Positions 6,962-61,160 of a stretch of 64,000 nt of DNA are shown one piece after another. Made by a program: the position numbers and the translations under genes. The number at the start of each line of letters is the position of its first letter. Position 1 is the stretch's first letter. Below the pieces are notes generated by a model that was given only the letters and a program-made list of their open reading frames with translations, did not search any database and was not told the DNA's origin. The DNA lies in assembly GCA_009746045.1 (NCBI GenBank), contig RPFO01000213.1:11073593-11137592 (forward strand). Direction: 5' to 3'. This stretch comes from Mesostigma viride (Eukaryota > Streptophyta > Mesostigmatophyceae > Mesostigmatales > Mesostigmataceae).

Positions 6962-7034
6962 CAATAAAAACAGAAAACAAAGTGGGGGAGCTAGCAAGCC
7001 AGGGGGTGCTAAGCCAGCAGGGGGGGACAAGAGG

Positions 7035-9365: not shown

Positions 9366-9376
9366 GGTTAAAGTTT

Positions 9377-10768
9377 GTGTGCAAGCATAAACCTCAGGCT
9401 GATGGGGGACCACCCATTTTCCATGCTAGGCCATGTGTTACTGAGTTCAGGGGCTCTACAGAGCTGACAGAGGCTGAGCTTTATACTCCTGGTATTCAGC
9501 AAACGTCTCTCAAGGTGTTGCTTTCCTTGTTTTTGCATCAGCTTAATACAGGGAAGGATTATGTGTGTAAAGCCACAGATATCAAAAGAGCCTTTCTAAA
9601 GGGGGACCCTGCCATAGCACAGCAGGTCTGGAGAGGTCAGGTATACGTGGTGAATACTCCTAAGGTGTGGCACAGGGATATTGTTCAACCCTTGTTGAGG
9701 CCAAACCTGGGGGTTGAAGGGTTGCAGTCAGCTCCAAAAATTTTTAGGCTGTCTGCACAGGAGGTATTCATGAAGCTAGGGGCCACCTATGATGACATTG
9801 ACCCTTGCCTGTTTGTCATCCCACACCCTGATGGAATGATGATGTTTGTCTGGCATGGGGATGATCAGTTAATCTCAGGTCCTAGAGCTGCAGTGGATGC
9901 TTTCATAGCTCAGGTGTCTGCCAGTTTTGAGATTGGCAAGCAGCTAGAGCTGGGCAAGGAGCCAGTCAAGTTCTGTGGCATGATGCTTGAGTTGCTGCAG
10001 CAGCAGGGCAGCTGGGTTTGTTCCATGCAGGCCTCTGCTGAATACATTAAGTCTTGTCTGGATGTCCTGCCTGTTCACATCACCCCTGACATGTGCCCTA
10101 CCATTAGAGGCAAGCTTGGTTGGCTATGTGCTACATGTGCACCCCACCTGGCTTTTGTGAGCAGGGTAGATGATGAGGTACTACAGGAGGTAGGAGCACG
10201 GGCAATCAAGCAGTTGTTGCATGATGGTCCACCTTTGATGCTTCACTCACTGGACCTGTTTACTCCCATTCACATCACGTGCATGATGGATAGTTCAATG
10301 GAGTCCAGGGTAGTTACCAAGGTTCAAGCCAGAGAGGCTGGATTGTTTTTCCTGCATAACCAAGGTGGGAAGAAGTCACTAGTCTCCTGGTTCAGTAGAT
10401 TGCACAAGAGGAAAGCTGTGAGTAGCAATGTAGCTGAATGCAGGGCTGTGGTATCTTCTGTCTTGCATGCAAGGTATCTCAATCACTTGCTGGTCTGGCT
10501 TCAACACCAGGCTGGTAGCTCTGCAGGAGTGAAAGCACATTTGCTGACTGACTCTCAATCTATCATCTCTTTCCTTGCCAATCCTTTGGCTGTACACTCG
10601 GACCTGGATTGGATTGTGCTAAAACAGGAATGCAAGTACCTGGAGTCTAAAGCCCACGTCAGGGACAAAGACAATGCTGCAGATGCACTGACCAAGGTGC
10701 CACAAGCAGCAGGACCACAATACCAGGTCTTGTATGGGTTGATGAACCCTGGTTACAGTCTGAAGTGA
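9377..10768 (+). CDS. Copia-like reverse transcriptase and RNase H
   Basis: The frame is open from about 9350, overlapping the previous frame, with GTG at 9377. RT motif A is DIKRAFLKGD (about residues 68-77), the AP-containing motif is a divergent form of the copia YGLKQAPR, and the catalytic motif is HGDDQ (about 160-164) instead of YVDD. RNase H acidic residues are visible in MMDSS, VAECRAV, LTDSQS and the copia-type KDNAADALTK near the C-terminus. RT and RNase H copy element RNA into DNA. Length (about 463 residues) suits RT plus RNase H. An AATAAA lies at 10907-10912, and the 3' purine tract and LTR follow. Confidence 0.88.
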   Translation: MCKHKPQADGGPPIFHARPCVTEFRGSTELTEAELYTPGIQQTSLKVLLSLFLHQLNTGKDYVCKATDIKRAFLKGDPAIAQQVWRGQVYVVNTPKVWHRDIVQPLLRPNLGVEGLQSAPKIFRLSAQEVFMKLGATYDDIDPCLFVIPHPDGMMMFVWHGDDQLISGPRAAVDAFIAQVSASFEIGKQLELGKEPVKFCGMMLELLQQQGSWVCSMQASAEYIKSCLDVLPVHITPDMCPTIRGKLGWLCATCAPHLAFVSRVDDEVLQEVGARAIKQLLHDGPPLMLHSLDLFTPIHITCMMDSSMESRVVTKVQAREAGLFFLHNQGGKKSLVSWFSRLHKRKAVSSNVAECRAVVSSVLHARYLNHLLVWLQHQAGSSAGVKAHLLTDSQSIISFLANPLAVHSDLDWIVLKQECKYLESKAHVRDKDNAADALTKVPQAAGPQYQVLYGLMNPGYSLK

Positions 10769-29263: not shown

Positions 29264-30112
29264 CACCATCACCATCACCATCACCATCACCATCACCATC
29301 ACCATCACCATCACCATCACCATCACCATCACCATCACCATCACCATCACCATCACCATCACCATCACCATCACCATCACCATCACCATCACCATCACCA
29401 TCACCATCACCATCACCATCACCATCACCATCACCATCACCATCACCATCACCATCACCATCACCATCACCATCACCATCACCATCACCATCACCATCAC
29501 CATCACCATCACCATCACCATCACCATCACCATCACCATCACCATCACCATCACCATCACCATCACCATCACCATCACCATCACCATCACCATCACCATC
29601 ACCATCACCATCACCATCACCATCACCATCACCATCACCATCACCATCACCATCACCATCACCATCACCATCACCATCACCATCACCATCACCATCACCA
29701 TCACCATCACCATCACCATCACCATCACCATCACCATCACCATCACCATCACCATCACCATCACCATCACCATCACCATCACCATCACCATCACCATCAC
29801 CATCACCATCACCATCACCATCACCATCACCATCACCATCACCATCACCATCACCATCACCATCACCATCACCATCACCATCACCATCACCATCACCATC
29901 ACCATCACCATCACCATCACCATCACCATCACCATCACCATCACCATCACCATCACCATCACCATCACCATCACCATCACCATCACCATCACCATCACCA
30001 TCACCATCACCATCACCATCACCATCACCATCACCATCACCATCACCATCACTATCACCATCACCATCACCATGACCATGACCATGACCATGACCATGAC
30101 CATCACCATCAC
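29264..30112. repeat. (CACCAT)n hexanucleotide tract, about 141 copies
   Basis: The tract is 849 bp of CACCAT with almost no interruptions until a CACTAT near 30050 and a short run of GACCAT variants at about 30070-30100. Because the unit is six bases with no stop in several frames, long artificial reading frames appear on both strands (Thr-Ile, Asp-Gly and Met-Val dipeptides). These are not genes. Confidence 0.97.
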
Positions 30113-37221: not shown

Positions 37222-39230
37222 CCTTCGTAACACTATTAAATTAAATTAACTTAAATAAATTATAACATGCCTCCGTTGGGAGATCATGTGGCACATATTC
37301 CTTGATGGGTGTGGAGGTGGAGGAAGCCGCGTAATCGAGCTAACCTAACTCTAAGCTATCTAGTCTATAAAATCCTAACTACCCTACTCAGCAAAACGCC
37401 CCTTCCTCTGGGGGGGGGGTGGCTTGCCCACAGGGGCTGGCGTGTGAGCCTGGACAATCTTCTGCCACCGCTTCTTGTTCTGCATGGCAGTCCAAAGAAG
37501 GGAGAGGGAGTGGATGCGGTGTTCAAACTGAGCTGGGACCACTAGGTCGGCCAGCAACATCTGGGTGTAGTTCATGGCAGGTTTACCTAGCTTCCTGAGA
37601 ATGTCCTTGGGGCCAGGCCAGGTCAAAATATGCCGCCCTGGCTGGCCAAGCCGCTGGGGGCCGGCCAGACCAAGGGCGGTGTCAACCTGGCTGGTGTGAG
37701 CAAGATGTCCTACAAATGCTATCCTACGCTGCCTAATCTCGTCCGAAATACGAGGCATACCATGATACAAAGACTCTAATGACCTACGCTGGGAAAACCC
37801 TACATTCAGGACCTGTCGGAGCATCCTGTAAACCGTGCCGTCTAGCTTAGCTGCCAGTGTGTCCGTGAGTGTCCACGCTTCGGCGCCATACGTGAGCACC
37901 GTGAGGACGAGGACCTTGAAGAGCATGCGCTTGCGGTGCTCGCCCAGGCCCTTCGAGCGCCAGTAGGTGTTGAGCGAGCGGAGCCTGGCCCAGGCCAGGC
38001 CGATGCGGATGTCCACATCGTCGGCGGTGTCAGGGGGCATGCTCCCCAACAGTTTGAAGCGGTCACGGAACGGGACCTCCGTCCCGTCGAGCAGGAGCGG
38101 CAGCGGTGGGCGTCTGGAGGCCCCGGCCAATCACCATCGCCTCAGTTTTGACACTAATCTCCAACCCCACCGCCCTCGCCTCCAAGCCCAGACAGTCCAG
38201 CCAGGTCTGAATGTGCTCGGGGCGCGCGATGAGGGTGGTGTCGTCCGCATAAATTAGGTCGGCCAGGCGGTAGCCAGTGCCAACCCCGCCGTGCTCGCGC
38301 TTGTTAAGGATGTCCAAGCCTGGCTCGAACCCCTTAAGAGCAGTAAAGCGCGCATGCACGTGCCCGGCGCATGGCGTGATTAAATTAAATTAAATTAATT
38401 TAATTTTAATTATGACAGGCCTCCGTTGGGAGATCATGTAGCACATATTCCTCAAGTGATGGGTGGTGGAGTGGGGAGAGCCGTGTAATCGGACTAACCT
38501 AAAGCTAATCTAGCTAGTCTAGAAAAATCCTAACTACCCTACTCATCAAAACGCCTCCTCCTCTTGGGGGGAGGTGGCTTGCCCACAGGGTCGGGCGTGT
38601 GAGCCTTGACAATCTTCTTCCACCGCCTCTTGTTCTGCATGGCAGACCAAAGAAGGGAGAGAGAGTGGATGCGGTATTCAAACTGGGCTGGGACCAGTAG
38701 GTCATCCAGCAACATCTGTACGTAGTTCGTGACATGTCATCATGGCGTAATCCACAACAATAATGAACAGGTATGGTGACAGGACACAACCTTGCCACAC
38801 CCCGTGGTGAAGGGGGAATGGTGGGGTGGTGCCTTCCGCAGTCCGCACTACTGCCTGTGAGCCCTCATACAGTCGACGAATGGCAGCAATAAACGCTGGT
38901 GGTACCCGATCCAGAGCTAGAATGGCCCAAAGAGCCTCCCAGAGGACCGTGTCAAAGGCCTTGATATAGTCGACAAAAATGAAGACCAGCGGCAGACCAT
39001 CAGGGCAAAGGCGACGCACCTCCTCCATCAACCGGCGCGCGACAAATACAGCCATGACAGTGTTACGACCACGGCGAAAACCCATCTGAGACTCACCCAG
39101 GTGTGGATCCAGCGCGGCACGGAGCCTGTGCAGCATCATGCCCATGAAGACCTTCAGCGCGGCTCTCTGGAGGCAGACACCCTGATAGTTACCGGGGTCA
39201 GCAGCAGATCCCTTCTTGAGCAGAGCCCTT
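37222..39230 (-). mobile_element. 5'-truncated LINE with RT domain, nested insertion inside
   Basis: On the minus strand, from about 39230: an RT with motif A FVDYIKAFD (about 38960-38990), motif B GVWQGCVLSPYLF (about 38770-38810), then a 363-bp insertion, then the catalytic YADD (about 38250) and a long C-terminal region ending at the stop 37384-37386. A 3' UTR and an AATTTAATTT-type tail reach 37222. RT enables target-primed reverse transcription. The 5' end is truncated near 39230, so endonuclease and ORF1 are absent. The C-terminal frame is open for 248 codons, so decay is modest. The LINE clade was not determined. Confidence 0.85.
38370..38748 (-). mobile_element. LINE 3' fragment inserted in the RT of another LINE
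   Basis: The 363-bp insert (38378-38740) is flanked by the 8-bp duplication CATGGCGT (38370-38377, 38741-38748). On the minus strand it carries the end of ORF2, 3' UTR and AATTT-type tail, very like the fragment at 13986-14232 and related to the 3' end of its own host. It splits the host RT between motif B and the YADD motif. Confidence 0.85.
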
Positions 39231-42768: not shown

Positions 42769-43908
42769 AGGGGATGGGAAATAAAGGTGGGAAACAATAT
42801 GATGATCAAAGTAGACATGTTAACTAGGGGATGGGAAATAAAGGTGGGAAACAATATGAGGATCAAAGTAGACATGTTAACTAGGGGATGGGAAATAAAG
42901 GTGGGAAACAATATGAGGATCAAAGTAGACATGTTAACTAGGGGATGGGAAATAAAGGTGGGAAACAATATGAGGATCAAAGTAGACATGTTAACTAGGG
43001 GATGGGAAATAAAGGTGGGAAACAATATGAGGATCAAAGTAGACATGTTAACTAGGGGATGGGAAATAAAGGTGGGAAACAATATGAGGATCAAAGTAGA
43101 CATGTTAACTAGGGGATGGGAAATAAAGGTGGGAAACAATATGAGGATCAAGGTAGACATGTTAACTAGGGGATGGGAAATAAAGGTGGGAAACAATATG
43201 ATGATCAAAGTAGACATGTTAACTAGGGGATGGGAAATAAAGGTGGGAAACAATATGAGGATCAAAGTAGACATGTTAACTAGGGGATGGGAAATAAAGG
43301 TGGGAAACAATATGAGGATCAAAGTAGACATGTTAACTAGGGGATGGGAAATAAAGGTGGGAAACAATATGAGGATCAAAGCAGACATGTTAACTAGGGG
43401 ATGGGAAATAAAGGTGGGAAACAATATGAGGATCAAAGTAGACATGTTAACTAGGGGATGGGAAATAAAGGTGGGAAACAATATGAGGATCAAAGTAGAC
43501 ATGTTAACTAGGGGATGGGAAATAAAGGTGGGAAACAATATGAGGATCAAAGTAGACATGTTAACTAGGGGATGGGAAATAAAGGTGGGAAACAATATGA
43601 GGATCAAAGCAGACATGTTAACTAGGGGATGGGAAATAAAGGTGGGAAACAATATGAGGATCAAAGTAGACATGTTAACTAGGGGATGGGAAATAAAGGT
43701 GGGAAACAATATGAGGATCAAAGTAGACATGTTAACTAGGGGATGGGAAATAAAGGTGGGAAACAATATGAGGATCAAAGTAGACATGTTAACTAGGGGA
43801 TGGGAAATAAAGGTGGGAAACAATATGAGGATCAAAGTAGACATGTTAACTAGGGGATGGGAAATAAAGGTGGGAAACAATATGAGGATCAAAGCAGACA
43901 TGTTAACT
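42769..43908. repeat. 57-bp minisatellite, 20 copies
   Basis: Twenty head-to-tail copies of a 57-bp unit (GGGGATGGGAAATAAAGGTG and so on) differ at only a few fixed positions, such as GAGGATC/GATGATC and AAAGTAG/AAAGCAG. Since 57 is a multiple of three and one frame on each strand lacks stops, 403-codon and 558-codon frames result, with a 19-residue repeat on each strand. No independent evidence of translation is visible. Confidence 0.95.
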
Positions 43909-44755
43909 CGTCGTCTGTCCCAACTCAGTCCTCACAGGTGGGTTAAAAAACAGGGGTAAAAAAGTAAAGGTAGAAAGCATAACAAGACAAAATTAGAGAC
44001 AAGAATGGGGAACAAGGTGGGTATCAATTATCAAGGTTGAAAAGCAAAGGTAGAAGCTAAAAATAGAGAAAAGAATGGGAAGTAAAGATGGGAAACAAAA
44101 ATGAGACTCGGAAGCAACGATGGAAGATAAAGATAGGAGACAAGAATGGGGAAAACCGATGCAGACCACAAGCACCACCTTGTCGCCTTGTAGGGCTTGA
44201 CACCATAACTCACTCCCCCCTTTCCTACCCACACACTCTGTCCATCTGAGAGGAGACATCATCAGCACGCTTTACTTTTCTGTACTTTCCACTTAAAATA
44301 CCTATTATTGGCCCTGAGTCCCCATTCGCGGTCTCTACCTGCTAGTGGCATTATCTATCAAGTATCGGTGCTATGTAGCGATTATATAGTCCCTATCCAT
44401 AATCGGCACGTTCTTTCTATCTATTCTTGGTACTTTAGAGGCTTTCTAGGCTCAGACACCTCCCCTCCAATCGCCTTGACGATGGATGGGTGCACGAACT
44501 CTACCTATTTACTGCTCTCTACCTATTCTAGGCACCACTTTATCTGCCCATGTACCCCCCAACTGACATTCATAATCGACCACGCCCTCCCCTTAACACT
44601 GGATTCGTGCGCAATCACACTCGGTAGTCGACACATGCACTTTGTGTAACTTGCCAGTACATAGTACATAATGTTCAAGTTGACCTTACCTTGATAACTA
44701 ATTGATTGATTATATGATTAATATTGGTTGATAATTATTTGACGAGTGGCCTCAC
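43909..44755. other. Purine-rich flank and probable 3' region of the glycosyltransferase gene
   Basis: Degenerate purine-rich sequence resembling decayed minisatellite runs to about 44160. The donor at the end of the glycosyltransferase exon implies that at least one further exon lies to the left, but I could not identify it. Confidence 0.4.
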
Positions 44756-47700
44756 CTTGATGATCGACAGGTGTGCCGCCCGCGACGTCATCTCCCACAC
44801 GTCTCGTCGCCGGTACAGCGCGGCGACCGCCCGCGCAAACTCCACCGGGTCGTCTGTGGCAAATCCAGGGGCCACATCCAGACCTCCAGGCAACAACACG
44901 CCGCCCGCATTCACGCCCCCCGCGGCGCCCACCGAGGCCACCGCACCATCGGCGGACATGGACGCCACGGATGATGCAGCGAGGGCACCGATCAGCTTGG
45001 CAGAGACCCGATGGCTGCCATCTCCGTGTACCGTTGCTGATGATGACGATGACGATGACGAATCCCCTGCTCCGTCCGGCCCTCCTCCCAGGACCCCATT
45101 GCCTCCCCCGGCACTTGCACTTCCACCAAGCAAGCCGCTCCCTCCCCCTCCCCCCTCCCCCACGAGCCCAGGGCAGATCTCGCTCCCCCCCAGCAGCGCG
45201 TCCAATTGCTGCGCGACACCTGGCGTGCCCCGCGCCGGCCGCCCCTTTCCTGTCGGCTCCTGCGTGAGGAGGAGCGACGCGCCAGCGCGCCCCGTCGCGA
45301 CAGGTGGCAGCCCCGCGGCCATCGCCCGCAGCGCGCCCTCGTCCACGCCCGACCCACCCTGCAGGGGGGCCACGTACACGCGGAACCGATCGAACAGCCC
45401 GCCATCCCTCTCCTCGGCCACTGCGGACTTGGGCAGGAAGACGACCGCGCCGGACTTGGCATTGGGCATCGCCTCGCGCGTCTCCTTGGGCCAATCGGAG
45501 CCCGCCACGTGGAGCGTCGCGCCGCGCCCGAGGCAAGCGTGCAGCCGCGGCCACACCTCGGAGAGGTACCAGGCGACCGAGGCCTCGGAGACCGGGTCGT
45601 TGCCATTTGCCAGAAATAGCAACCCTGACCGGGCGGCCCACCGGCTCGGCGATCGGTCTTGGGGATCCACGGCATCTCCCGGCGATGCTATTAATAGACC
45701 GCTATCCTTGTCGCCGTCGCTATTAATAGACCGCCAGTCGGGCACGCCAAAGCTCCTCGCGTCCTCGGGCAGCAGCGACGCGGCGTGGGTACCACCGACC
45801 GTCACCGCCTCCGCAGCCGCCGCTGCTGCTGCGGCGGCAGAGAGCATGGCCGATGATGACAAGGTGGATGGGTTCTCGCCGCTGCCATGGCCTCCGGGGC
45901 CCCCGCCGGAAGATCCATCATCTGCGTGGTCGGACCCTGGACCATGCCCTGTAACCCCCCCGTTACTGCTCCCACTTTTACCATCCCCCCCGCTAACGCC
46001 GGGACCGCCGCTTCTGCCTCCTCCTCCCATGAGATTACCGTTACCATACCCTTTCCTGCCGCCGCTGCCACCGTTCCCCCAGAAGTTTGCGGATGCCAGC
46101 AGCGAGTGCCGCAGGACGAGCATCGCGGGCCTCTCGGCTGCCTTGATGTGCCGCCGCAGAGTGGCCAGGTCGCCCTTGGCCGCCACCAAGGCCACGTCGG
46201 CCGCGCGGTAGATCGCCAGCTCGCGCTGCATGAGCGCCTCGTCGGCCGCGTCGTCCTGGGGGGAGGAGGACCCAGTGGGGGAGTGGCTGCTGGCCTCCCG
46301 TTTACTGGCGATCGGCACCGACTCGCCGGCCGCATCACCCTTGCTGCCACCGCCACTCCTGCCACTGCTGCCACCGCCACGGCTGCCATGGGAAGTGCTG
46401 GCGTCCGTCACTGTGGGATCAGCCGAGCGCGAGGCCGCGGCGCCTCTGCGCACGGCGGATGCTTGCCGAGAGGACATGGAAGGATCTGCGGCTGTTGCTG
46501 CTGAGGACGCGGTGGATGATGCGGGCTGGGGCAGTGATGATGATGACAGCTGGGCGCCTCGCGTCGCGCTGGCCGCACGAGCCCCCCCCGTGGATAAGGA
46601 CAGGGAGGCGGCGAGCAGTGCCCTGCGCGCATGCCCGGCTGTGCCAGCACTATTGCCAGCAACCCTGCCAGCAATATTGCCAGCATTACTGCCAGCATTA
46701 GCGGCGCGACCGGCGGCCCCGTTCATGGTCGCAGAGGTGTCCGTTCCCATGCCGCCAGAGGCTGCCTGCTGCATGTTATTATTATTGTTGCTGTTGCCGG
46801 CTCTAGCGGACCCGCGTGCGTGCGTGCGTGCCCCTTCAAAAGGCAGTGGCCCGCGCGGCTCGACTCTTGACTCTCGCGGGTCTCCTCGTCGCGTGTGCAA
46901 GAAATGGATGCGGTCGGACATGACCACCACGCGCGTGGAGGGAGAGGAGCTGCGGATGGTGCAGAGGAACTCTTCCACTGCGCTGTTGCTGCCAATCACA
47001 TCAGTGCCGTGGTGGCTGGCTTGCGAGGCCATCGGGGAGGAAGAGGGAGGGAAAGTTGAAGAAGCTAAGAGAGAGGAAGACGAAGATGATGAGGATGACG
47101 ACGATGATGATGATGACGAGGATGATGAGGAGGATAAGGAGAAGGCATCACCTGGATTTTTGTTGATGCCGGCGCCAGTGCTACTTCCCAAGCTGGCACT
47201 GGCGGCCCCCACGCCCATGCCATGGGAGTCACCGCTAGCAATCGCTGCTTCGCCACTGCCGGCCGTAACGAGGCCATCCCTGTCCGGCGGCCCCAGCCGG
47301 TCTACCCCCATCGCAGCCGCAGGGCTGTGCCACGGGAACACGAGCGGCAGCAGCGCGACCTCAAAGGGCATGAAGTGGAGGAGGAGCCGTAGCTGGGAGA
47401 TGGCGTGGCCATGGTCATGCTCCGAGGACGGAGACGAGTAGGAAAAGGAGGAAGAGGAGGAGGAGAAGGACGAGTTGGATGCTGCGGCGGATTTCCCATG
47501 GGGTGGGTCGGACTGGGTCACGAGGCAGCCGGGACCCTTGCAGGGGATCCCGATTCGCGACAGCTGGCGCAGGTGCGCTGGGGTCACGTAGGGCCTGGCC
47601 TTCCACGCGTACAGGACGACGCCATGGTGCTGCTCCCGCAGGATCTGCATCAACTGGAGCACCCTGGCGTCTAGGGAGTTTGCTTCGGGGCAGGGGACGC

Positions 47701-48451
47701 TCGTGTGGATGACGAGGATGGAGGCGGCGCCGCCCTCTCCGCGGTGCATGTGGACCAGGGCCAGGCACATGGTCAGGAAGAAGAGGAAGAGGGAGAGCGC
47801 GTGGAGGGGCTTCCTCCGGGCGGCCAGGACTGCAAGGGTCGCGGTGCGCTTGGCCTGCCGCCACTTGGCGTCCAGCCGCGGGTGGGCCTCGAGCGTGTGC
47901 GCCCACCATTCAGAGGAGGAGGCGGAGGAGAGGGCATGGCGCGCAAGGGCGGGGTATTCGCCGATGGGAGTCGCCGCGAGCGTACGCGCGGCGTCCCCGG
48001 CGGCGGACGCGGCGACCCCCGCGGCGGACGCGGCGACGCCCGCGGCGGACGCGAGGCAGGCGGAGGCTTTGGTGACGCCATCCCTCACGTCGTTGAGGGT
48101 CACGGACCTCGCGGAGGTGGATGCCTTGATGACGCCGTCCCGCGCTTTGCGTGCATAATTGTAAAGCTGAGGCGAGGCTTTTTCCAAAGCATCTACTACC
48201 TTTTGGAAATGGGGAGTCGCTTGCTCCCAAACGTCGGCTACCTTGCCACAGCCGGGAAGCTTCGATGTCCTCAGCGCGAGCGGCACGGACCAGACAGGAG
48301 GGGGTTGTGAGGGCCGTTCCTCGGCCACAACTTGCGGCACGGACCAAGCAAGATCACTGTCCAACTCTTCCACATCGGTAACAACCTGTGCAGGCTCGCT
48401 CCTGCATATTGCTTCCGCCGAATCCGCTGGGCGGTCGTCGGCATGCTCCAT
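44756..48451 (-). CDS. GT4-like glycosyltransferase, type II membrane protein, 3' exon(s) missing
   Basis: The ATG at 48449-48451 opens 1232 codons, ending exactly at an AAG/GTGAGG donor (GT at 44754-44755). An Ala-rich amphipathic N-terminal region precedes one membrane span, LSLFLFFLTMCLALVHM (about 217-233). A GT-B N-terminal start follows (ILVIHTSVPCPEANSLDARV, about 246-265). Long Ser, Gly and Ala tracts, including a run of over 20 Ser, separate this from the C-terminal GT-B half (about 940-1232), with LLFLANGNDPVSEASVAWYL, APLQGGSGVDEGALRAMAAG and a DDPVEFARAV stretch. GT4 enzymes transfer sugar from a nucleotide donor; the single span suggests Golgi or ER. The classical E-x7-E pair is not evident. 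Donor and acceptor are unknown. Confidence 0.75.
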
Positions 48452-49085
48452 CAGCCGAGAATGCCGGCAAAGGCTTTAAGACGAGCACGCCGCCCTCTAG
48501 GGCGGGCCAAAGCCGGCAAGGAAGCGAAATGCATAAACAATATTTACGTGCAACGTTCGCAACATTCCAAAAACTGCCATGCCAATCGTTCGGTTCTCAC
48601 CAATTTTCTACGTCGTTGCGAAATGCAAATTGCCAATATACCTAAAAGCAAACACGAAATTATGGCGGCAAACGGATGCGGCAGCAAAAGCATGCGGAAT
48701 ACTCCCAGCTAAGTTCAGCATACGGAGATCGTAGTTGCGCGTAGCTTCTGGGCCAGGATCTATACGTTTCTGCGGGCTCAAGCCACGCGGTTCAACCACA
48801 CTGGGACCACCGCGGTGCCTCGCCAACGGTGGGCACCGCATGGCGTGCCATGAATGACCTGTCACCTTCGTGGTGGGGACGAAATCGCTTTTCCCGAACG
48901 TTTCCCTCACAAAACCACGAAGGCAGGCTGCCGGATATAGAGCGCGGGGGTCAAAAGAAAAAGCAACGTTCCAGCGAGCGCGTGAAAATGTTTGTGAGAC
49001 GCCACTGCTGCTAGCCTCGTTAGGCGGAACTGCACACCGCAGGCGGCATTGTTTGGTGGATCAGGCAGCATTCAGGCCGAAGGAA
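48452..49085. promoter_or_regulatory. Divergent intergenic region between glycosyltransferase and Rac-like genes
   Basis: 634 bp separate two start codons that point away from each other, so both promoters must lie here or within 5' introns. I could not identify a TATA box or other defined site with confidence. Confidence 0.4.
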
Positions 49086-49679
49086 ATGGACGGGGAGCAG
49101 CTGAAATGCGTGGTGGTCGGGGACGGTGGCACGGGGAAGACGTGCATCTTGATGTCCTACACCACTAATATGTTCCCTAGAGATTATGTCCCTACTGTTT
49201 TTGACAACTTTAGTTCGAACGTGCCTTATGGAGACACGATCGTCAATCTAGGGTTATGGGATACAGCCGGCCAGGCTGGTTATGGCCGTTTGCGGCCCCT
49301 GAGCTATGCCAACGCGCACGTCTTCCTAGTAGTCTTTGATCTCACGAACCAGCAGAGTTTTGAGAACGTTTCGAAAGAATGGATCCCGGAGCTGAAGCGG
49401 TATTCCCCAGACGTGCCTATTGTTCTCGTGGGCAACAAGACGGATTTGCGGGACGATCCCGACAATGCCTTTTTCAAGGAAAATCCGGACGCCGTCAGAA
49501 TCACGGCCGAACAAGGGAAGGCTCGTGCCGACCAAATTGGTGCCTTGTACGTAGAATGCAGCGCGAAGACGACGCAGGGATTGAAAAATGTCTTCGAGAG
49601 CGCCATCCGGGTTGTGCGTGATCCCACAACAAATGGCAAGAAGAAGCAGAAAGAAAAGGCGTGCTGCTCTCTCATGTGA
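49086..49679 (+). CDS. Rac/Rho-family small GTPase, intronless
   Basis: A 197-residue Rho-family GTPase, close to the usual size. Visible motifs are the P-loop GDGGTGKT (about 11-18), switch I with [14 protein letters not shown] at the start of switch II, NKTD for guanine specificity, the Rho insert helix (about 125-137), ECSAK, a Lys-rich stretch and the C-terminal CAAX box CSLM preceded by another Cys, suited to prenylation and membrane attachment. Rac proteins switch between GDP and GTP to control actin, vesicle traffic and oxidase activity. Switch II reads GQAGYGRL where Rac/ROP have GQEDYDRL. The frame is open upstream, but this ATG gives the normal N-terminus. There are no introns, unlike its neighbours. 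Confidence 0.93.
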
Positions 49680-51938: not shown

Positions 51939-54900
51939 CTAGACGGCATCAAGCAGGAGCTCATGGTGCCGAAACACGTTCAGTGCGACCTTGCAAAAGC
52001 CCCTGGTCTCCTTGTCATTGCCCGCCTGGTAGATGAACCACCTCTCGCGCAGCAGCAGCAGGCACACGGCCATGTCCGCAATGTCTCGCAGCGAGGGCAC
52101 GATCATCGCCCGCTGCTCCGCTCTCAGCGCCTCAAACACGCTGCCACGGCTCTTTTGGACCTGCTGGCACGCGCTCGATAGCCCTTCCAGGACACATGTC
52201 ACCTCGGGGGGGGGGCGCTGCCCAACTCTCTGCTGCCACTTGCTACAATCACTCTCACTTGAGTAGTACTTGTCGACCGTGCGCTGGAGGGACTTGCGAT
52301 CCAGGCTCATCGTCCGCAGCAACCGGGCCACCGCCTTGGACGCCAGCAAGAAAATCCTGCGCTGTGAGCTGGCGCCCCGCAGCTCCCCCATTGTCAGATC
52401 TCCCGTGGCCTCCCCCATGCACCGCAGGAGTCGCTCGGCGGGCAGGCGTATCAGCACCCTGGCAGGGGACGAGCAACCCAGGGTCTCGTTCTGCACCGAA
52501 AAGATCACCATGTGTGCAGGGATCTCTTTGTCAATACTTACAACCAGCCACGGCCGGCCAGCCCCAGCTCCCTCCTCTCCTCCCTCCCCACCAGCATTTT
52601 CGGCAAGCCTCCCTTCCATGCCCAGAAAATCCTCGTACTCTGGGCGAGCAACCACCACGACTTCACGGTTCGTAACGCCAGCGCCGCAACTCTGCCCATG
52701 CCCAGATGCACCTGGCAAAACAGCCTCCGCCCCGGTGCCAACATTACCCGCCCCGCCACTGCCCCCGCCATTTGCACCCACCCCAGCGCCTGGGGAGGCA
52801 ACAGCACCCCGCCCCCCCCCACCGGGAGCATCCCCGCCAGCTGGCGGGTCCACGGCATGCCACACGGCGCGGCTGCAGGCCCTCGCGCTGACCCCCATCG
52901 GCAGCGACACGCCCTCCAAGAGATGCGCCAGCATCAGCTCTCGTTGCAGGTCGCCCTCGCACGCCCGGTAGGCTGCGCACAACGCGGACTCGCCCCCTGG
53001 GAACCGCGCTCCGACCGCCTTGGCTGCGGACAAGGACACGCGCGCGTGCTGGCTGAGCCACTCGGCCAGCGCGTCCCCTTTGTTGGTGGCCGCGGGCGTG
53101 CACTGCGGCGAAACGAGCTCAAGAGGGCCGAGTGTGGCCACGAGGGTGGGCCGAGTCAGACCTCCGTCCGCATCCGCCCCACTGGGAGCTGCATCAGGCA
53201 ACGACAGCATCGCCAGCGCGTATGAGAGGTGTGCTAGCATCCGGCACGTGCCCTGCTCGTCCAGCGTCTGTAGCGCCTGGAACCCCGTGCCGGCGCCCTG
53301 CAGGTAGGCCAGCAGGGCATCGATGTCGGCGGCGCACTGGATGGTGCCCGTGCCAAGGGGCATGCTGGCCCAAAATGACGATGATGATGACGAGGATGGC
53401 CCTGCCCCCAGGTTGAGGTAATTACCGGCTGCCCCGGCACCCCCCGCATACGCACCCCGCGGGTAGGTATCGTCTGGATCGGCGCCGCGGTAGCGGCCAT
53501 CGGGGCCGTAACCGCCGGGCACGTACGCGACTTGGTTCTTGGAGGTCTCGTTCTTGCCCTCGAGGAGGAGGAACCGGCGGGAGAAGGGGCTGCCCATGGT
53601 GCGGTGGATCTGCTTTAGGTGGTCCCTGGTCCGTGACCGCTCCACCAGGTCCTTGATGGTCTTGCGCTCGATGTTGCAGTCGAGCACCGTGCCACCGCGG
53701 CACCACTGTGTGTGTGGGGACGTGTGTGTGCGCGTGTGCGTGTGTGAAGGGGTGGGATGGGTGGGTGGGTGGGTGGGTGGGTGGGTGGGTGGGTGGGTGG
53801 GTGGGTGGGTGGGTGGGTGGGTGGGTGGGTGGGTGGGTGGGTGTTTGTGCGTGAGGGTGGGTGGGTTGACGGGGAGGCCAAGGGTGACAGGTGACAGCGT
53901 AAGGGGCATTGCGAAGAGGTGTGGTGAGCGAGGAACTTTGCGCCAGGAGGCTAGGACTTGACACATAGGGGTGGGCCGGAATAGATCCACGTAGGGGTAG
54001 GGGTAGCGATAAACACAAAAAGAATGCGCATGGGGTTGGCAATAGAAGGTTGGCAGTAGAAAGCATCGACCCAAAGTAACATATCAAGAGAGCCCCTACA
54101 GCAGTGCATCCCGACACGCGCAGATAATGACAACCCCCTTTGGTCGTGCTATTGGAAAACGACCCGTCAACCATGCTAGAGCAATATTCCCCCATCTATC
54201 TACCATGCGCCAGCAACACACCCCTACTACCATGCTATCGCACTAGACCCAACGATCACGCCGCCAGCCCGTTTGTACAACAACCGCAACCTTGCTGTCA
54301 AACTGACGGTGACCGCAACAGACCCAAATACCACGCTGCCAAACGTACCATGTAGTCTCCTACGGGTGGACAAGAATAGGGGCTATGGTAATGCACGCCT
54401 CACGCCTACTACCATGCCGCCAAACGTACCATGTAGTCCCCGAGAGGTAAACTGCTTCGTTCGGGTATCGGGTCCAACATCATGTCCCTGGTTGCCGCCC
54501 CATCCCTCACATCCCCACCGCCAGCGTTGCCCATAGTCCTGGCACCGCCCCTACTACTGCCAATCGGCACGGGCGGGCTGACCAGTCGGCGCATCTCCGC
54601 GCCTATGGCGTCCCGCAGCCGCCGGGGGGCCTTGTTGGTCTTTCGCTCATGCAGGCACACAAGTATGCGGACCTCCTCTACGTCGGTAGGGACCTCTCCA
54701 CCTTCCTCCTCCTCCTCCCATGGCTCTTCCTCCCCATCCTCCCCATCTTCTTCAACAACATGATCTCCCTCTTCCTCTTCCTCCTCCTCCTCCTCCGCAG
54801 CAGCCACGTGGGCCCTATGACTTCCTCCGACTGCCTCCGCCTCTCCTCGGCCACCCTTCCCCCGGCCTTCTCCTGCAGCCTTCTTCCCTGACAGGGGAGT

Positions 54901-57900
54901 AGTCCTCGCGGCTGGGGCACGACGGCCAGCCGCACGAGTACCTCCATCCCTGCCATCGGATCGAGCCTCCCTTCCAAGACCCGCCTGACCTTGAGCCGGA
55001 TGGGTTGTGACGATGTTGGCGCCATCCACCGGATCATCTCCACCAACACCATGGCCGTTGATGCCGTTAGGATGAGCACCATCTCCATCAGTATTGACTC
55101 CATTCCCTGGCTTTCCTCCTCCCCCCACAACTCCCTGCCGTGTCCTATAACGACGTCCCCTCCCGCCTGCAACACCATATCCCTCGTCCTCGCCCTCCCC
55201 AACGCCGCCACTGCCAGCGTCCTCACCGTCGTCACTATCCTCTTCCTCCCCAGCACCGTAACGGCTGTCACTCAGCGCCAGGCCCGACCTTGAATCGTAA
55301 TCCTCGTCATCCGGATCATCATCTTCCTCCTCCTCCTCGGTTTCCGTCATTGTATCCGTGCCACCATCGTCCGCCCCAGAATCCACCCTCTCGGGGTCAT
55401 CCTCCTCCACGTCCTCCCTTTCCTCCACTCCTGCCCCTTCCCCCTTCCCAACCTCCTTCCCCTTCCCTTTTCCCTTGGCTACCGCCACCTCCTCTCCTCG
55501 CTGCAGTCGCGGTGACGAGTGTGGCGATGCCATCTGTGCTGCGCCGGCCTGTGGAATCACCTCCTCCTCCTCCTCGCCCCCATCTAAAAGAATGACATCA
55601 TAAGTGCCCGATTCTGCCAGCCGCCGCCGGGCAGCGGGAGGTGTCCTATCAGCATCGGGGGACGCGCGTTTCCCAGAAGATGCCCCCCCTGCCCTGGACG
55701 CCAGGGGGTCTCCAGATTGATTCCCACGGGCGGCGGGAGGTGGGGTTTGCGCACCCCTATTCCCCCGCGGCTGGGGAGAACGCCTGGCTGGACAGCCCCT
55801 GCTAGTTGTAGCGGCATTCACATCACCCCCCCTCCCCTTGTCGGCATCGCAATCATGTCCGTCGTCATAGCCACCAGCCGTCATATCCTCCACTTCCCAA
55901 CCACCTCCATCTATCCCCCATTCCAAGTTCCCATCGTGTGGGACCCTGGTGTCCTCACGGGTGTCCGCCCGGTCCCTGCCAGATGGCAGCGAGCCGGCAC
56001 CAACGCCTCGCCCCTCCTTGCACATGGTTGGTCCAGCAGTAGCTATGGCACCCGCGACGTTGCCCGTGGTGGTGACGGCCGCCTTATCCAACACGAATGC
56101 GAGGCTACGCTTGGCTCCCACCACCACCGGGGCCGGTGGCACGATCGGGGGATCGTCCTCGGATAGATCAATGACATCCATGGGCGGCACCACCGGGGTT
56201 CGACCGGACCGGCTACCTGCCCCACTGTTACGGTTGCCAGCTACATTATCCGCGGCACCCGATGGAGCGACCGAGCGGTTACCCTGCCTCCCGGCAGCCG
56301 GAGGGGTCGACATACGCGGCTGGGCCGCGGCCACATCAGGGGTGAGCACCCGGTAACCATCTGCCCCCCGGCCATTTCTTCCTCGTTCTTCTTCTTTTTC
56401 GTCATCATCGTCGCTGTCCACAAGGTCAATGACTTTCGCAGGCGCCGCCGATGCCGGTGGAGGTTTGGTTGGAACACGCTGGGCGGGTGGCCTCAGCACC
56501 GACTGGGATCCCCCCAGGGCCGTGCTGCCGCCTTCGGGACAGATCACCTCCACATCCCCCCGCATGCGACGCGAGTTCTCATCCTCTTTACGGCTCAACT
56601 CCAACGCCGTCTGCATGTCGCGATCAAGTTCGTCCAAATGTCCCTGGCCACCTCCGACCAGTTGCTCCCACTCACCCCCTGGGAACCTGGCCGAGTTCCT
56701 CGCGAACGAGTCCCTGAGGCTCTCCTCCACCGCCCTCTCGAAGGCGAGCTGCTCGTCAAGGTACTCTCCGGATGACGAGTCCAGAAACAGATTGTTGTTT
56801 TGGACAAAGTCGTCGTTGTCATCATTGCCCAAAGAGGGCATGCCGCCAAAGCCAAGGCCCTGGTCCGAACGGGACCGCCCTCTTCCTTCATCTCCGCCCC
56901 TTGGAGGCCGCGACCCCTGGGCCACCCTGCTCCCACCAGTGGCCACCTCCCTGCCCCCCGGTACCACCGTGAGTGCACGCTGCCTGTCCGCGGGTTGCAA
57001 GTCCGCACGGCCCCCCAGTGACGAGGGTGGGTACACAGCTGGCCCTTTCACCGTGCCCCCTGCGGCCATGACTCGCTCCATCATGGCAAGGTCGTCCTGG
57101 GGCGTCCTCGTTCCCACACCGCCCCCTGTCCCTCCTCCTCCTGCCCCCTGCCCTGCCCTCACTCCTCCTTGGTCCCTCCTTTCGGCTGTGTTCCCATTGG
57201 CCGCTGCCCCCCTCCATCTGTCCCCTGTCGCCGGTGGAGTGGCTACTGGCACACGCGCCTGCGCAGGCGGTGGAGTGGCTATTGGCACACCCGCGTGCGC
57301 AGGCGGTGGGGTGGCTATTGGCACACCCGCGTGCGCAGGCGGTGGAGTGGCTACTGGCACACGCGCCTGCATACGTGGCGGTGGAGTGGCCACATCAATC
57401 CGTGGCGACGACCCGCCAGCCACCGCGGACCCACCGACACCGCTGCCGTTCACTCTACCAGGCCGGTCACTGTACCCCTGGCCCGACTGGGGTTCTTGAT
57501 GGCCACCCGGAGGCGTGGCGGTCCCCTGCCCGTCCCCACCAGGGGGGTACGCCAGCTGCTTCCCCTTGTCCTTTGCGGCAGCTGCAGCGGCTCTGGCCTT
57601 GGCTTCTGCCTCCCTCGCCAACGCCGCATTCCCCGCGGCCTCTTGAGGGTTCCGGGGCTTGTTGGCGCTGCTGCCCACACATGGCCTCCCCCCTAGTTGG
57701 GTATGACTCCCTCCTCCTCCCCTCCTCTCACCATTCCCGGGTGTGTTGGATCCTTTGCCCAAGTCTGGCGTACGGGGCTCCACGCCACTGCCACCTGGGT
57801 GGTTGCCCTGCAACGCTATGAACGTGCTGACGCTGCTGCCACCCGTACGAGCCCGCTTCCAGGGACGCGTGTTGCTGCGCTCTCCATTCGCACCCAACCC

Positions 57901-58985
57901 ATCCTCATCGTCAGATGATCGGCCTTCGCCCGTTTGCAGAATATGAATGTTGGAAGACCCCCCTACCTGCGCTACCCGGCGGGCAGCCCCCCTTGCATTT
58001 GGCGGCCCTGCAGCAACCCTAGTTGAGGGCCCCGCACCACCCCTAACGGCAGACCCCGCACCGCCAGCATACGACGGCCCCGCACCACCCACATTCGACG
58101 GCCCTGAACCACCCACATTCGACGGCCCCGCAACGCCCCCATCGGCAGGCCCTGCAACACCCCGATGTGATGGCCCCCCACCGCCCCCAGTGGCAGGCCC
58201 CAGCCCCGCGTCCCCCACCGGTGGCCGCAGCAGCTGCACGCGCAGCTTGCGCTGGCGCCCGGTGCCCACGCTCTGGTGGTCCACCACGGCACAAAGGCCA
58301 TCGCGCCTCTGCGCGTCGTTGATCTTCTCACACAGCTTGTGCAGGCCCTGGCGCACTTTCTTTGCCCCCTGGAACTCGCGGGTTTCGCCGACCGGTGCCG
58401 ACCGCACAAACTCGATCAATGTAGCTCGAATCGCAGGGTCAAGGTTGCGTAAGGATGCAGGCTCCATGCGGCCCCTGACGATGCCTAGGTTGCCCTCCTG
58501 CCCGTCCTCTTCGGCTGACCCCGGGCCTGGCCCTGCGTCGGCGGGCCGGCGCTCCGTCTGGTCCCAGTCGGGTCGGACCTCGTACATGAGGTAGGCAAAG
58601 TCCCACCCTTTTTGTGTGAGTATGTACTGGTCGCGCGGGCCCTGGTTGGCAAAGTTGTGTGCGGCGCGCCCGGCGATGTTGTTGATGTGCTCCACAAGCC
58701 CGTGCCTGTTGAGCGTCCTGATGCTGGCGTACGTGGCCGGGAGGGTCCATGAGGGGGTGGTTACATTTAAGGGTTATAAGACCACTATAATTGAGAGCTT
58801 CATGCCGAGATGCGTGCGTAAAAGTTGTGGGTGGATGCAGAGGGGTGGGTGCATGAGGGTGTGAGTAATACAAAAAGAATCGAGCCGGTGTTTGCTGTTC
58901 GGAGTTGCACATGTAAGGGAATGCGCGGGGGTTGGCAGGGCGATGCAATAGCAGCGTACTCCTGGAGCAAAAAGGAGGATCATTT

Positions 58986-59039
<54 letters not shown>

Positions 59040-61160
59040 GATGCTGGAGGGGTTGATGGGGGGATTCACGAAGAAGAGTTGGAGTGTTCCCGGGACGGCA
59101 AGTAAGTGTTAATTGCGGTAGCTAGTAACTAGCAAGCCAAGATTTCAAGAAAGATGAGGGTTTTGTTTGGGATTGAAGGTAAGGGCGTCCTTATGGGCCA
59201 GGTCTTTCAAAACGAAAGGTGGTCAATCTAGGCGCATAGACAGCATGGAATTGAGGTGAATGTGGCATTGGCAAGTACTGGCGCTCTGACACAGAAATGA
59301 AGGAAATAGATAGGAAAAAGGTCGCCCTATTCCCCTCTTTCCCGACCAGCCCTCCACCCCCAGCTATCCAAACTCCAAATTCCACAGGAAATGATAAGCG
59401 ATGCCTCAACGCGGGTGAATAAGAGCATTTACATCCACAACTTAAACACAGCCACAGTACTGATAGTGGGACTAGGACACACAGAATGCCTGCATTACGC
59501 TCTGCAAAGGGGAAAAAACAGTGACAGCGATGCGTGCACACACGGATCAGGTAGATATCCGCATTGGGGCAGATCTCTATATATACTACCCATAGGGGCC
59601 AATACTATATATCGCCGCAGCCTGCCCAAGCGCACTCTGCCAGCAGCTACCAAACCCAACCACCTCAACAGGATATGTCTCTATTGGACACGATCTAGAC
59701 TTGTCTTTCCTAAGGCACTGCGTGAGTGTGCTCGCCCTTCAAAGGCCAAGATTGCATGGCACTCGTCTCTTTTGCTGTGCTTCAGACGGTGTACTTATCC
59801 TTGGTCTGAATAGGGGCATCTGGTCCTTCATACGAGGACAAGCCCCTTTCTCCCCACGACATGCAGCCCCACCCCCCTGCGAGGACAACCCTACGACTGT
59901 TACAAGTCCATAAATGGTCAACGGATGGCATGGCACATGTTTCCCCCTTACCCGGACCATGCGCCGAAATCCCGCCCCGCCCAGTGGTCCGGGCTCATCT
60001 CCGCATCGCAGAACCGCTGCGCCTCACGGATCAACTCGGCTCGAAAGAAGACGGTCCGCCCCCCGCTCGCGATGTGGAGATGCTCGCATGCCTTTAGGAT
60101 GGCATAGGCCCCCCCACGGTGCTTGATCTCTCGTATGTAAGGGTGCCTCTTCAATTCCCCGATACGTGGATCACCCCCCTCCTCCTCGTCCCCTTGATCC
60201 TCCTCCTCGCTTCCCGGAGCATCCCCTCGGCGATTGTCAGTGGGAATGATGGGCATCTGGCAGGGTGTTTGCAAACCGTGATGACAAACAAACGCATTTG
60301 GCACGGCCAGTTGCTTTATGAAAAGAATGAGTGCTCAGGGTTTCGCCGGGAATATAATGAAGAAAGGGCAGTGATACTAATTCTTATATATTGCAAGTTG
60401 CAGACAGGTGTGGGAGCCGTGCTAGAGCAGAAGCTTCTGCAGCTGTGGAAACATTATATGTTAGGGCATCGCAGTCCTAGTCTAGCCGCAGGCACCGCCG
60501 TCCACGTTAGTAGGGAAGCTGCCGAAAGGCAGACAATGTCTGGCATGGAAGTTGCTGAGATGTGGTGACATGCTGGAAGGCCGTGAGGAGTGTTGGAACT
60601 CCATGTCCCACACTTGCAGAGATATACCAACATGAATGAATGCTTCTATGCAAGGCCTCGAGAAAGACAACAAGAAACACCACGCGTATTAACAGAGCGA
60701 TTCCCCAAGGGGCGAAGTTCCAGAGGTGGAGTGATGAGATGTGCGTTCAGGAGTCCCAGTAGGCCCTTTAGGAGAAATATGACCATCATCACATCCTGTC
60801 AAACTTTTTTAAAGCAAGGTTTGCAATCAATACGTACCCTCTTCTAGGGCATTGTGGCGAATTGCTTATATGCGTTGGTGCGCGCAGGAGCCTCTCTCGA
60901 CTTACCCTTCCGTTGATAATGGCATACGCGGCATTCCTCGCGGTTGTATGCGTGAAGTTCGGCAGGTTGAGAATATTTCCGCTGCTGGCAACCATATAGA
61001 TGTCTCTGTTGACCGCTTCGACCTCTTTTCGGGCTACTTCCCACATATATTGCTGCCTGGATCTCCTGTGGATGCATACTTGTAAGCGCGCATCGAAAGC
61101 CGTGATTAAGTCTTGGTTCCAAACACGCCGGCGTTCGGGCGCCTCGCGTCTCGGAGGCAT
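51939..61160 (-). CDS. MUS81: MUS81-type structure-specific endonuclease with giant linker
   Basis: Four exons: 60906-61160, 59952-60256, 54430-58723, 51939-53705, joined in phases 0, 2 and 0 with GTAAGT, GTAAGG and GTACGT donors and CAG acceptors; 6621 nt, about 2206 residues (MUS81 is usually 550-660). N-terminal helical HhH-like region (about 10-85). Winged helix: AYAILKACEHLH, FRAELIREAQRFCD, then GAWSGIRTLNRHGLV across a splice and YILTQKG. Linker about 240-1530 with an R3H-like domain (about 285-355), UIMs near 843-860 and 885-901, and SIM-like VIDLVDSDDDD (about 948), VIDLSEDD (about 1037) and VILLDGGEEEE (about 1229). ERCC4 nuclease: RILVCLHERKT (about 1535), LPLGDYM/W across a splice (1612-1619), IERKTIKDL (1630-1638). 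HhH2 follows (about 1833-1870), then a 300-residue C-terminal extension. MUS81 with an EME1 partner cuts branched DNA in recombination and fork repair. Confidence 0.88.
53757..53842. repeat. (TGGG)n tract in MUS81-like intron 3
   Basis: About 21 copies of GTGG/GGGT in a row lie roughly 50 bp from the intron's 3' splice site. On the transcribed RNA it is a C-rich (ACCC) tract; the DNA plus strand is strongly G-quadruplex prone. Confidence 0.95.
58987..59038. repeat. (GT)n microsatellite in MUS81-like intron 2
   Basis: About 26 GT dinucleotides without interruption. Confidence 0.97.

What the first reader, a model, noticed from the sequence alone, without database searches (positions are those of the whole stretch)
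54430..60256. MUS81-like nuclease with R3H-like, ubiquitin-binding and SUMO-binding motifs in a ~1300-residue linker
In known MUS81 proteins the winged helix and nuclease domain are separated by a short linker. Here exon 3 inserts about 1300 residues carrying an R3H-like fold (R-x3-H in VRQGLH with the following GTGRQRKLRV strand), two UIMs that fit the acidic-F/M-x2-A-x3-S-x2-acidic pattern (ERAVEESLRD, MQTALELSRKE) and three hydrophobic-acidic SIMs. In animals, modifier-reading for MUS81 complexes comes from SLX4 (UBZ and SIM motifs). This gene would place ubiquitin and SUMO reading, plus a possible single-stranded nucleic acid module, inside the nuclease itself. The exon phases and the domain order across three splices make a misjoined model unlikely.
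Basis: partly seen in the sequence, partly recalled or inferred. Interest (0 to 1): 0.87.

Follow-up and report, generated by a model that had tools for sequence, protein, structure and literature searches.

The report
MUS81 relative with ubiquitin/SUMO-reader motifs
This is a very long eukaryotic relative of the DNA-repair nuclease MUS81 whose extra linker appears to carry its own docking motifs for the marker proteins ubiquitin and SUMO, while part of its cutting site looks altered, so it may be steered to damaged DNA in an unusual way or may not cut at all.

Summary
On the minus strand a four-exon, 2206-residue model with GT-AG introns in matching phases has MUS81 order. Pfam finds the winged helix (27.4 bits, cut-off 27) and ERCC4 domain (33.6, cut-off 24). 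Between them lies a linker of about 1300 residues with an R3H-like segment, two UIM-like and three SIM-like motifs. Each of the UIM and VIDL-type SIM counts is reached by at most 6 of 5000 shuffled linkers. R3H matches Pfam only after a 10-residue loop is taken out (E 0.0004-0.004), below cut-off. Repeat periods and the missing stops suggest that the linker is translated.

Two things change the reading. The first catalytic motif (Asp, Glu) reads His and Lys, so nuclease activity is doubtful. SUMO reading inside a MUS81 complex is already known from fission-yeast Eme1. A C-terminal domain of about 240 residues matches no family.

No relative was found, but the collections appear to hold no eukaryotic MUS81, so conservation is untested. 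New variant of a known kind.

The parts
60906..61160 (-). Exon 1: start codon and N-terminal region (residues 1-85), resembling the MUS81 N-terminal HhH by position and by eye only
   Evidence: no Pfam match
59952..60256 (-). Exon 2: acidic stretch and first half of the winged helix
   Evidence: PF21136 27.4 bits, cut-off 27, together with the start of exon 3
54430..58723 (-). Exon 3: end of winged helix, R3H-like segment, long linker, start of ERCC4 domain
   Evidence: no Pfam match when scanned on its own
58219..58440 (-). R3H-like segment (residues 282-355), R-x3-H at 311-315, about 10 extra residues in the helix-strand loop
   Evidence: Pfam R3H E 0.0017, 0.0004 and 0.0037 with ten loop residues taken out, cut-off not reached; none unedited; 0 of 10 shuffles
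56707..56757 (-). UIM-like motif 1, DEQLAFERAVEESLRDS (843-859)
   Evidence: pattern; no Pfam match alone
56578..56634 (-). UIM-like motif 2, DELDRDMQTALELSRKEDE (884-902)
   Evidence: Pfam UIM_2 E 0.014, UIM E 0.067, both below cut-off
56386..56436 (-). SIM-like motif 1, KVIDLVDSDDDDEKEEE (950-966)
56152..56178 (-). SIM-like motif 2, DVIDLSEDD (1036-1044)
55561..55599 (-). SIM-like motif 3, DVILLDGGEEEEE (1229-1241)
54640..54672 (-). ERCC4 strand 1, VRILVCLHERK (1538-1548); in the gapless alignment the catalytic Asp and Glu columns hold H1545 and K1548
51939..53705 (-). Exon 4: rest of ERCC4 domain, (HhH)2 region and C-terminal extension; stop codon at the low end
53646..53669 (-). ERK-x3-D motif, ERKTIKDL (1631-1638)
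52851..53081 (-). (HhH)2 region (about 1827-1903)
   Evidence: PF21292 22.5 bits, E 1.3e-4, cut-off 27.4
51942..52670 (-). C-terminal domain of unknown family (1964-2206)
   Evidence: no Pfam, NCBIfam or credible PDB match; GC by codon position like the winged-helix and ERCC4 segments

Best explanation
A diverged MUS81-family protein of an unidentified eukaryote whose long linker (probably disordered, by composition) works as a built-in recruitment arm. The tandem UIM-like helices and the SIM cluster would bind ubiquitin- and SUMO-marked repair or replication proteins together, as SIM plus tandem UIMs do in RAP80 and as tandem UBZ plus SIMs do in SLX4. The winged helix and R3H-like segment would add DNA (possibly single-strand) contacts, and the ERCC4-(HhH)2 part would pair with an EME1-like subunit at branched DNA. 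Shown by sequence: the domain order, the motif strings, and the intact GD and ERK-x3-D motifs. Inferred: binding of ubiquitin, SUMO and single strands, pairing with EME1, and residual cutting activity, which the changed first motif makes uncertain.
For: Winged helix 27.4 bits and ERCC4 33.6 bits, both over the Pfam cut-off, and EME1-MUS81_C at E 1.3e-4. GDxxW and ERK-x3-D invariant in an alignment with yeast and zebrafish Mus81. UIM and VIDL-type SIM patterns beyond shuffles and decoys. R3H match confined to deletions in one loop: 3 of 10 deletions (E 0.0004, 0.0037, 0.16), the 7 others none; 0 of 10 shuffles. Tandem arrays: in exons 3-4 all 11 rows, 5 separate places, have periods divisible by 3; the 4 rows in introns have periods 4, 14, 14 and 2. 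R3H, UIM and C-terminal segments share low GC2 and high GC3 with the winged-helix and ERCC4 segments. Precedents in print: RAP80 (PMC12751080), SLX4 (PMC8599992), Eme1 (PMC9032445).
Against: No relative was available, so conservation of any motif is untested. Both UIMs are below Pfam cut-off and UIM1 matches nothing alone. R3H is not found unedited, nor in the PDB; a deletion at the edge of the same loop (LCEKINDAQR) gave no match, and other edited or shuffled segments hit unrelated families at E 0.1-0.3, so the 0.16 hit is at noise level. With a four-sequence profile the unedited segment scores only 5.2 bits, reached by 39 of 20,000 shuffles, and the aligned part is the strand alone, without R-x3-H. 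The high-GC3 signature is not shared by exon 1 (0.61) or the Rac-like gene (0.65). The nuclease stretch and the N-terminal stretch found no MUS81 in the PDB by single-sequence search. UIM1 and UIM2 are 31 residues apart, so RAP80-type linkage choice by a rigid helix is not expected. The linker could be ordinary low-complexity expansion: the neighbouring glycosyltransferase frame (44738-48475) has a 114-residue Pfam match in 1246 residues. Strand 1 lacks the catalytic Asp and Glu.
Confidence: 0.5

Rival explanations
1. An ordinary MUS81 orthologue with a long low-complexity linker typical of this genome. The UIM- and SIM-like strings are chance or have no function, and only the winged helix, ERCC4 and (HhH)2 parts matter.
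For: Linker is 17.9% G, 11.9% A, 9.1% R, 8.3% P with 24- and 36-nt tandem arrays; the neighbouring glycosyltransferase frame is also stretched by low-complexity sequence; UIMs below cut-off; loosest SIM pattern not enriched.
Against: Two UIM and two VIDL-type SIM patterns are each reached by at most 6 of 5000 shuffles; R3H and UIM stretches have GC3 of 0.76-0.77 against 0.54-0.63 in the three other linker segments measured.
Confidence: 0.3
2. A catalytically weak or dead MUS81 relative that acts as a junction-binding scaffold, comparable in logic to FANCM-FAAP24, whose nuclease folds lack catalytic residues.
For: D-x-R-E of strand 1 reads H-E-R-K in the gapless alignment; in a second alignment the Asp column holds P and the Glu column S; DGR of the following helix reads T-R-D. 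A third alignment leaves strand 1 unpaired with the yeast motif. The ERCC4 match starts after strand 1 even with the insert taken out. FANCM-FAAP24 as non-catalytic pair: PMC6320978, passages.
Against: GD and ERK-x3-D are intact; in ERCC1 the ERK is lost (PMC6320978), as in EME1 (recalled). An assembly error or a divergent way of binding metal is possible.
Confidence: 0.35
3. Exon 3 is not one exon: an unrecognised intron removes some or most of the linker, and the first strand of the nuclease comes from a different exon.
For: Five GTRAGK-type donors occur inside exon 3, one a GTGAGT between the two UIMs; strand 1 fits the family poorly.
Against: 1301 linker codons without a stop, against 32 expected after dinucleotide shuffling, 0 of 300 shuffles stop-free; 28 and 52 stops in the other sense frames. 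Array periods divisible by 3 in the linker and not in introns.
Confidence: 0.1

Closest known systems
MUS81 (yeast, human, zebrafish; solved chains 2zix, 2ziu, 2mc3 listed)
   Same: Winged helix, ERCC4 domain with GD and ERK-x3-D, (HhH)2 region, in the same order
   Different: About 1300-residue linker with R3H-like, UIM-like and SIM-like elements; strand-1 Asp and Glu not found; C-terminal domain after (HhH)2
S. pombe Eme1 (PMC9032445, passages read)
   Same: SUMO-interacting motifs inside the MUS81 complex
   Different: There in the non-catalytic partner's N-terminus; no UIM or R3H mentioned in the passages seen
S. cerevisiae Yen1 (PMC8986097, passages read)
   Same: A junction-resolving nuclease that reads SUMO with its own SIMs
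   Different: Different nuclease family (Rad2/XPG, recalled)
SLX4 (PMC8599992, passages read)
   Same: Two ubiquitin-binding and three SUMO-binding elements linked to MUS81
   Different: Scaffold protein with UBZ4 zinc fingers rather than UIM helices
RAP80 (PMC12751080, passages read)
   Same: SIM plus tandem UIMs in one protein
   Different: Not a nuclease; UIMs closely spaced (recalled), here 31 residues apart
SMUBP-2 R3H domain (PDB 1msz, 2lrr)
   Same: R-x3-H and the H-x-S-x-G-x-G-x2-R-x-[IL]-x-V pattern
   Different: About 10 extra residues in the helix-strand loop here; host protein is a helicase there (recalled)

Membership tests
MUS81 family (homology) | MUS81-like winged helix | tested here: met
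   PF21136 27.4 bits, cut-off 27, a narrow pass
MUS81 family (homology) | ERCC4 nuclease domain | tested here: met
   PF02732 33.6 bits, cut-off 24; exon 4 alone 21.3
MUS81 family (homology) | C-terminal EME1/MUS81 (HhH)2 region | tested here: inconclusive
   PF21292 22.5 bits, E 1.3e-4, cut-off 27.4
MUS81 family (homology) | N-terminal HhH domain | tested here: inconclusive
   No Pfam match in exon 1; fits by position and by eye only
Active XPF/MUS81 nuclease | GD...ERK-x3-D | tested here: met
   GDYMW and ERKTIKD
Active XPF/MUS81 nuclease | Acidic Asp and Glu of strand 1 (DxRE; DIGE in human) | tested here: not met
   H1545 and K1548 in the gapless alignment, P and S in a second alignment. 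So not filed as an active nuclease
Active XPF/MUS81 nuclease | Cleavage of flaps or junctions with an EME1 partner | not testable with these tools
   needs biochemistry; host genome could not be searched (nine unanswered calls, last)
R3H domain (PF01424) | R-x3-H and following G-rich strand | tested here: met
   residues 311-315 and 336-349; pattern, written after seeing it, absent from 85,815 decoy residues
R3H domain (PF01424) | Pfam cut-off 26.8 bits | tested here: not met
   no hit unedited; best 20.8 bits with a 10-residue loop deletion. Called R3H-like only
UIM (PF02809/PF23625) | Pfam cut-off 21 bits | tested here: not met
   UIM2 13.5 and 15.9 bits; UIM1 none. Called UIM-like only
UIM (PF02809/PF23625) | phi-x2-A-x3-S-x2-acidic pattern (recalled) | tested here: met
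   2 matches, both with an acidic residue in the five positions before
SIM | Hydrophobic core flanked by acidic residues | tested here: met
   3 matches
SIM | Measured SUMO binding | not testable with these tools
   needs biochemistry

The most novel reading that the evidence does not exclude
A MUS81-family protein that has taken SLX4/RAP80-type combined ubiquitin and SUMO reading and an R3H DNA contact into its own chain and has changed its metal site, so that in this lineage MUS81 serves chiefly as a modification-directed junction binder, or cuts only when its readers are engaged.
Probability: 0.2. Interest if true: 0.8.

Novelty: new variant of a known kind. Interest (0 to 1): 0.5.

Why it matters
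In the animal and yeast work seen here, modifier reading by MUS81 complexes is ascribed to other proteins (SLX4; Eme1). A MUS81 with its own tandem ubiquitin and SUMO readers would give a one-protein system for asking what modification signal brings a junction nuclease to DNA. The altered strand-1 motif, if real, gives a direct test of which acidic residues MUS81 needs.

Tried and rejected
Relatives: three protein searches returned none (3162 candidates, none at E <= 10; the 8000 candidates sharing most words scored, none at E <= 10; likewise 8000 scored, with a profile including yeast and zebrafish Mus81, none at E <= 0.001). Since even that profile found nothing, the collection seems to lack eukaryotic MUS81 proteins and the absence says nothing about novelty. 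IMG/VR scans with exon 4 and with the winged-helix/R3H stretch gave 9 and 5 pattern matches and no relative. A GTDB scan with exon 4 gave 53 pattern matches and no relative. Single-sequence PDB searches: the nuclease stretch none at E <= 10, the N-terminal stretch one unrelated GTPase at E 0.67, the R3H stretch none.

Considered and rejected: EME1 instead of MUS81 (a winged helix and an intact ERK motif are present). A frameshift hiding the catalytic Asp (by eye, neither other frame of the DNA restores D-x-R-E; not computed). The C-terminal domain as a known fold: PDB hits at E 0.33-1.6 only, none in Pfam or NCBIfam. DVEVICPE at 910-917 as a further SIM: not among the acidic-flanked matches. 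tRNA scan (bacterial code) and Rfam scan at gathering cut-off were empty. A phage-record search with the Rac-like gene found nothing.

Literature: the listings of searches showed no title or abstract start about a MUS81 with UIM or R3H. Some were partial: 35 showed 20 of 98, 51 showed 12 of 22,916, 66 showed 6 of 32, 70 showed 10 of 17. In one of the two papers of one search the R3H protein is a DNA2 candidate (PMC4853372, passages); the other was not opened. The library lacks most subscription journals. PMC125967, on the XPF active site, is not held.
Full report
Gene. Reading the minus strand of 61300-51900 gives a four-exon model: 61160-60906, 60256-59952, 58723-54430, 53705-51939. Introns are GT-AG, 649, 1228 and 724 nt long; the phases at the three junctions agree and the 2206-residue product has no internal stop. 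The winged helix is split by intron 2, which reads cleanly as GAWSG-IRTLNRHGLV, and the nuclease motif GDYM-W is split by intron 3.

Family. Pfam gives MUS81-like winged helix (27.4 bits, cut-off 27, a narrow pass), ERCC4 (33.6, cut-off 24) and EME1-MUS81_C (22.5, cut-off 27.4, E 1.3e-4). Exon 4 alone gives ERCC4 at 21.3 and EME1-MUS81_C at 21.7 bits, and exon 3 alone gives no Pfam match. Single-sequence PDB searches with the nuclease and N-terminal stretches found no MUS81, so the protein is far diverged. In an alignment with yeast (recalled) and zebrafish (print-out) Mus81 the G-D-x-x-W and E-R-K-x3-D columns are invariant and the (HhH)2 stretch is in register. The N-terminal HhH of exon 1 is placed by eye (no Pfam match). 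I take the gene to be of the MUS81 family by homology.

Active site. The first metal-binding motif is not conserved. In the gapless local alignment, human VLLCVDIGET pairs with ILVCLHERKT: the Asp column holds His1545 and the Glu column Lys1548. The generalised-gap alignment places the motif elsewhere, and there the Asp and Glu columns hold P and S. The DGR of the following helix reads T-R-D (yeast, XPF and Hef rows recalled, human row from the PDB print-out). The alignment leaves the yeast motif unpaired. With the nuclease insert taken out, ERCC4 scores 43.1 bits but its match starts after strand 1. GD and ERK-x3-D are intact. I take this as real doubt about catalysis, not proof of loss.

Linker. 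Residues 236-1537, 1302 aa, rich in G, A, R, P and acidic residues. It is very probably translated: 0 stops in 1301 codons against 32 expected after dinucleotide shuffling (0 of 300 shuffles stop-free), 28 and 52 stops in the other sense frames. Tandem arrays (15 rows): the 11 rows in exons 3-4, at 5 separate places, have periods 12; 9, 6, 3 and 24; 18; 36; and 24, 48, 24 and 72; the 4 rows in introns have 4, 14, 14 and 2. Five consensus-like donors lie in exon 3, one GTGAGT between the UIMs, so alternative splicing is not excluded.

R3H-like segment. Residues 282-355 follow the winged helix. Unedited, no Pfam match and no PDB match. Taking out ten residues of the loop between the R-x3-H helix and the G-rich strand gives PF01424 at E 0.0017. 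Of ten further deletions of that length, three gave R3H (E 0.0004, 0.0037, 0.16), all in that loop; seven gave none, one of them a deletion overlapping the near edge of the loop. Unrelated families turned up at E 0.13 and 0.3 and 0.1 among the ten shuffles, so the 0.16 is noise level; 0 of 10 shuffles hit R3H. A profile of four PDB-derived R3H rows gives the unedited segment 5.2 bits, reached by 39 of 20,000 shuffles, and aligns only the strand. The H-x-S-x-G-x-G-x2-R-x-[IL]-x-V pattern is shared with SMUBP-2. I call it R3H-like, with an insertion.

UIM- and SIM-like motifs. Two UIM patterns (848, 890), two VIDL-type SIMs (951, 1037) and VILL (1230). Shuffles: UIM 3 of 5000 global, 0 of 5000 local; VIDL 2 and 6 of 5000; acidic-flanked SIM P 0.016 and 0.012; loosest SIM P 0.076 and 0.13, not enriched. 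Six-frame decoys: 3 UIM and 2 VIDL-type in 85,815 residues, none of the latter with the acidic tail. Pfam: UIM_2 15.9 bits for the region of both motifs, at motif 2; UIM 13.5 bits for motif 2 alone; cut-off 21; nothing for motif 1. The UIM stretch (841-915) has GC1/2/3 of 0.67/0.39/0.77, near winged helix (0.60/0.45/0.79), R3H (0.73/0.45/0.76) and ERCC4 (0.60/0.49/0.81), while the other linker segments have GC3 of 0.54-0.63. Exon 1 (0.61) and the Rac-like gene (0.65) do not share the high GC3, so this is a supporting sign only.

C-terminal domain. Exon 4 continues past (HhH)2 through a G-rich spacer into about 240 residues (1964-2206) that match no family. The domain has GC1/2/3 of 0.66/0.45/0.75, and residues 1906-2206 hold no stop where about 8 are expected (0 of 300 shuffles stop-free).

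Relatives. None could be reached; the protein collection appears to lack eukaryotic MUS81, and the host genome could not be searched (nine unanswered calls, the last). The organism is not identified; an algal origin is not tested.

Comparison with print (passages seen, not whole papers). Fission-yeast Eme1 has two SIMs that bind SUMO and matter without Rqh1 (PMC9032445). Yen1 has SIMs needed for its foci (PMC8986097). SLX4 has tandem UBZ4 and three SIMs (PMC8599992). RAP80 reads SUMO-ubiquitin chains by SIM plus tandem UIMs (PMC12751080). So modifier reading inside a MUS81 complex is known; the combination of tandem UIM-like and SIM-like motifs and an R3H-like segment inside the MUS81 chain did not appear in the listings of searches, some of which were partial.

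Verdict. Best reading: a diverged MUS81 with a built-in recruitment arm (0.5), whose own cutting activity is in doubt. The rival of a weak or dead nuclease (0.35) can be true together with it. Interest 0.5, held back by one sequence and no conservation test.

Noticed in passing
51942-52670 (-): About 240-residue C-terminal domain after (HhH)2 in the same ORF, no Pfam, NCBIfam or credible PDB match.
   Followed up: partly
54640-54672 (-): First catalytic motif of the ERCC4 domain reads H-E-R-K in place of D-x-R-E.
   Followed up: partly
44738-48475 (-): 1246-codon stop-free frame with a glycosyltransferase match (Glyco_trans_1_4, 32.6 bits, 114 residues), heavily stretched by low-complexity sequence.
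   Followed up: partly
49098-49676 (+): Small GTPase in one uninterrupted frame (Ras family, 172 bits), Rac/Rho-like by eye.
   Followed up: partly
29264-30112: Array of about 141 copies of the hexamer CACCAT, 99% matching, open in several frames on both strands.
   Followed up: no
42769-43908: 57-nt tandem repeat, 20 copies, 99% matching, inside long open frames on both strands (568 and 408 codons).
   Followed up: no
6906-10765 and 14407-17113 (+): Remains of a copia-type element (rve and RVT_2, both below cut-off) and of a Ty3-type element (RNase H, integrase zinc domain and Tf2-1-like SH3 above cut-off, chromodomain just below).
   Followed up: partly
38705-39229 (-): Reverse transcriptase (RVT_1, 62.4 bits), perhaps of a non-LTR element.
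   Followed up: no
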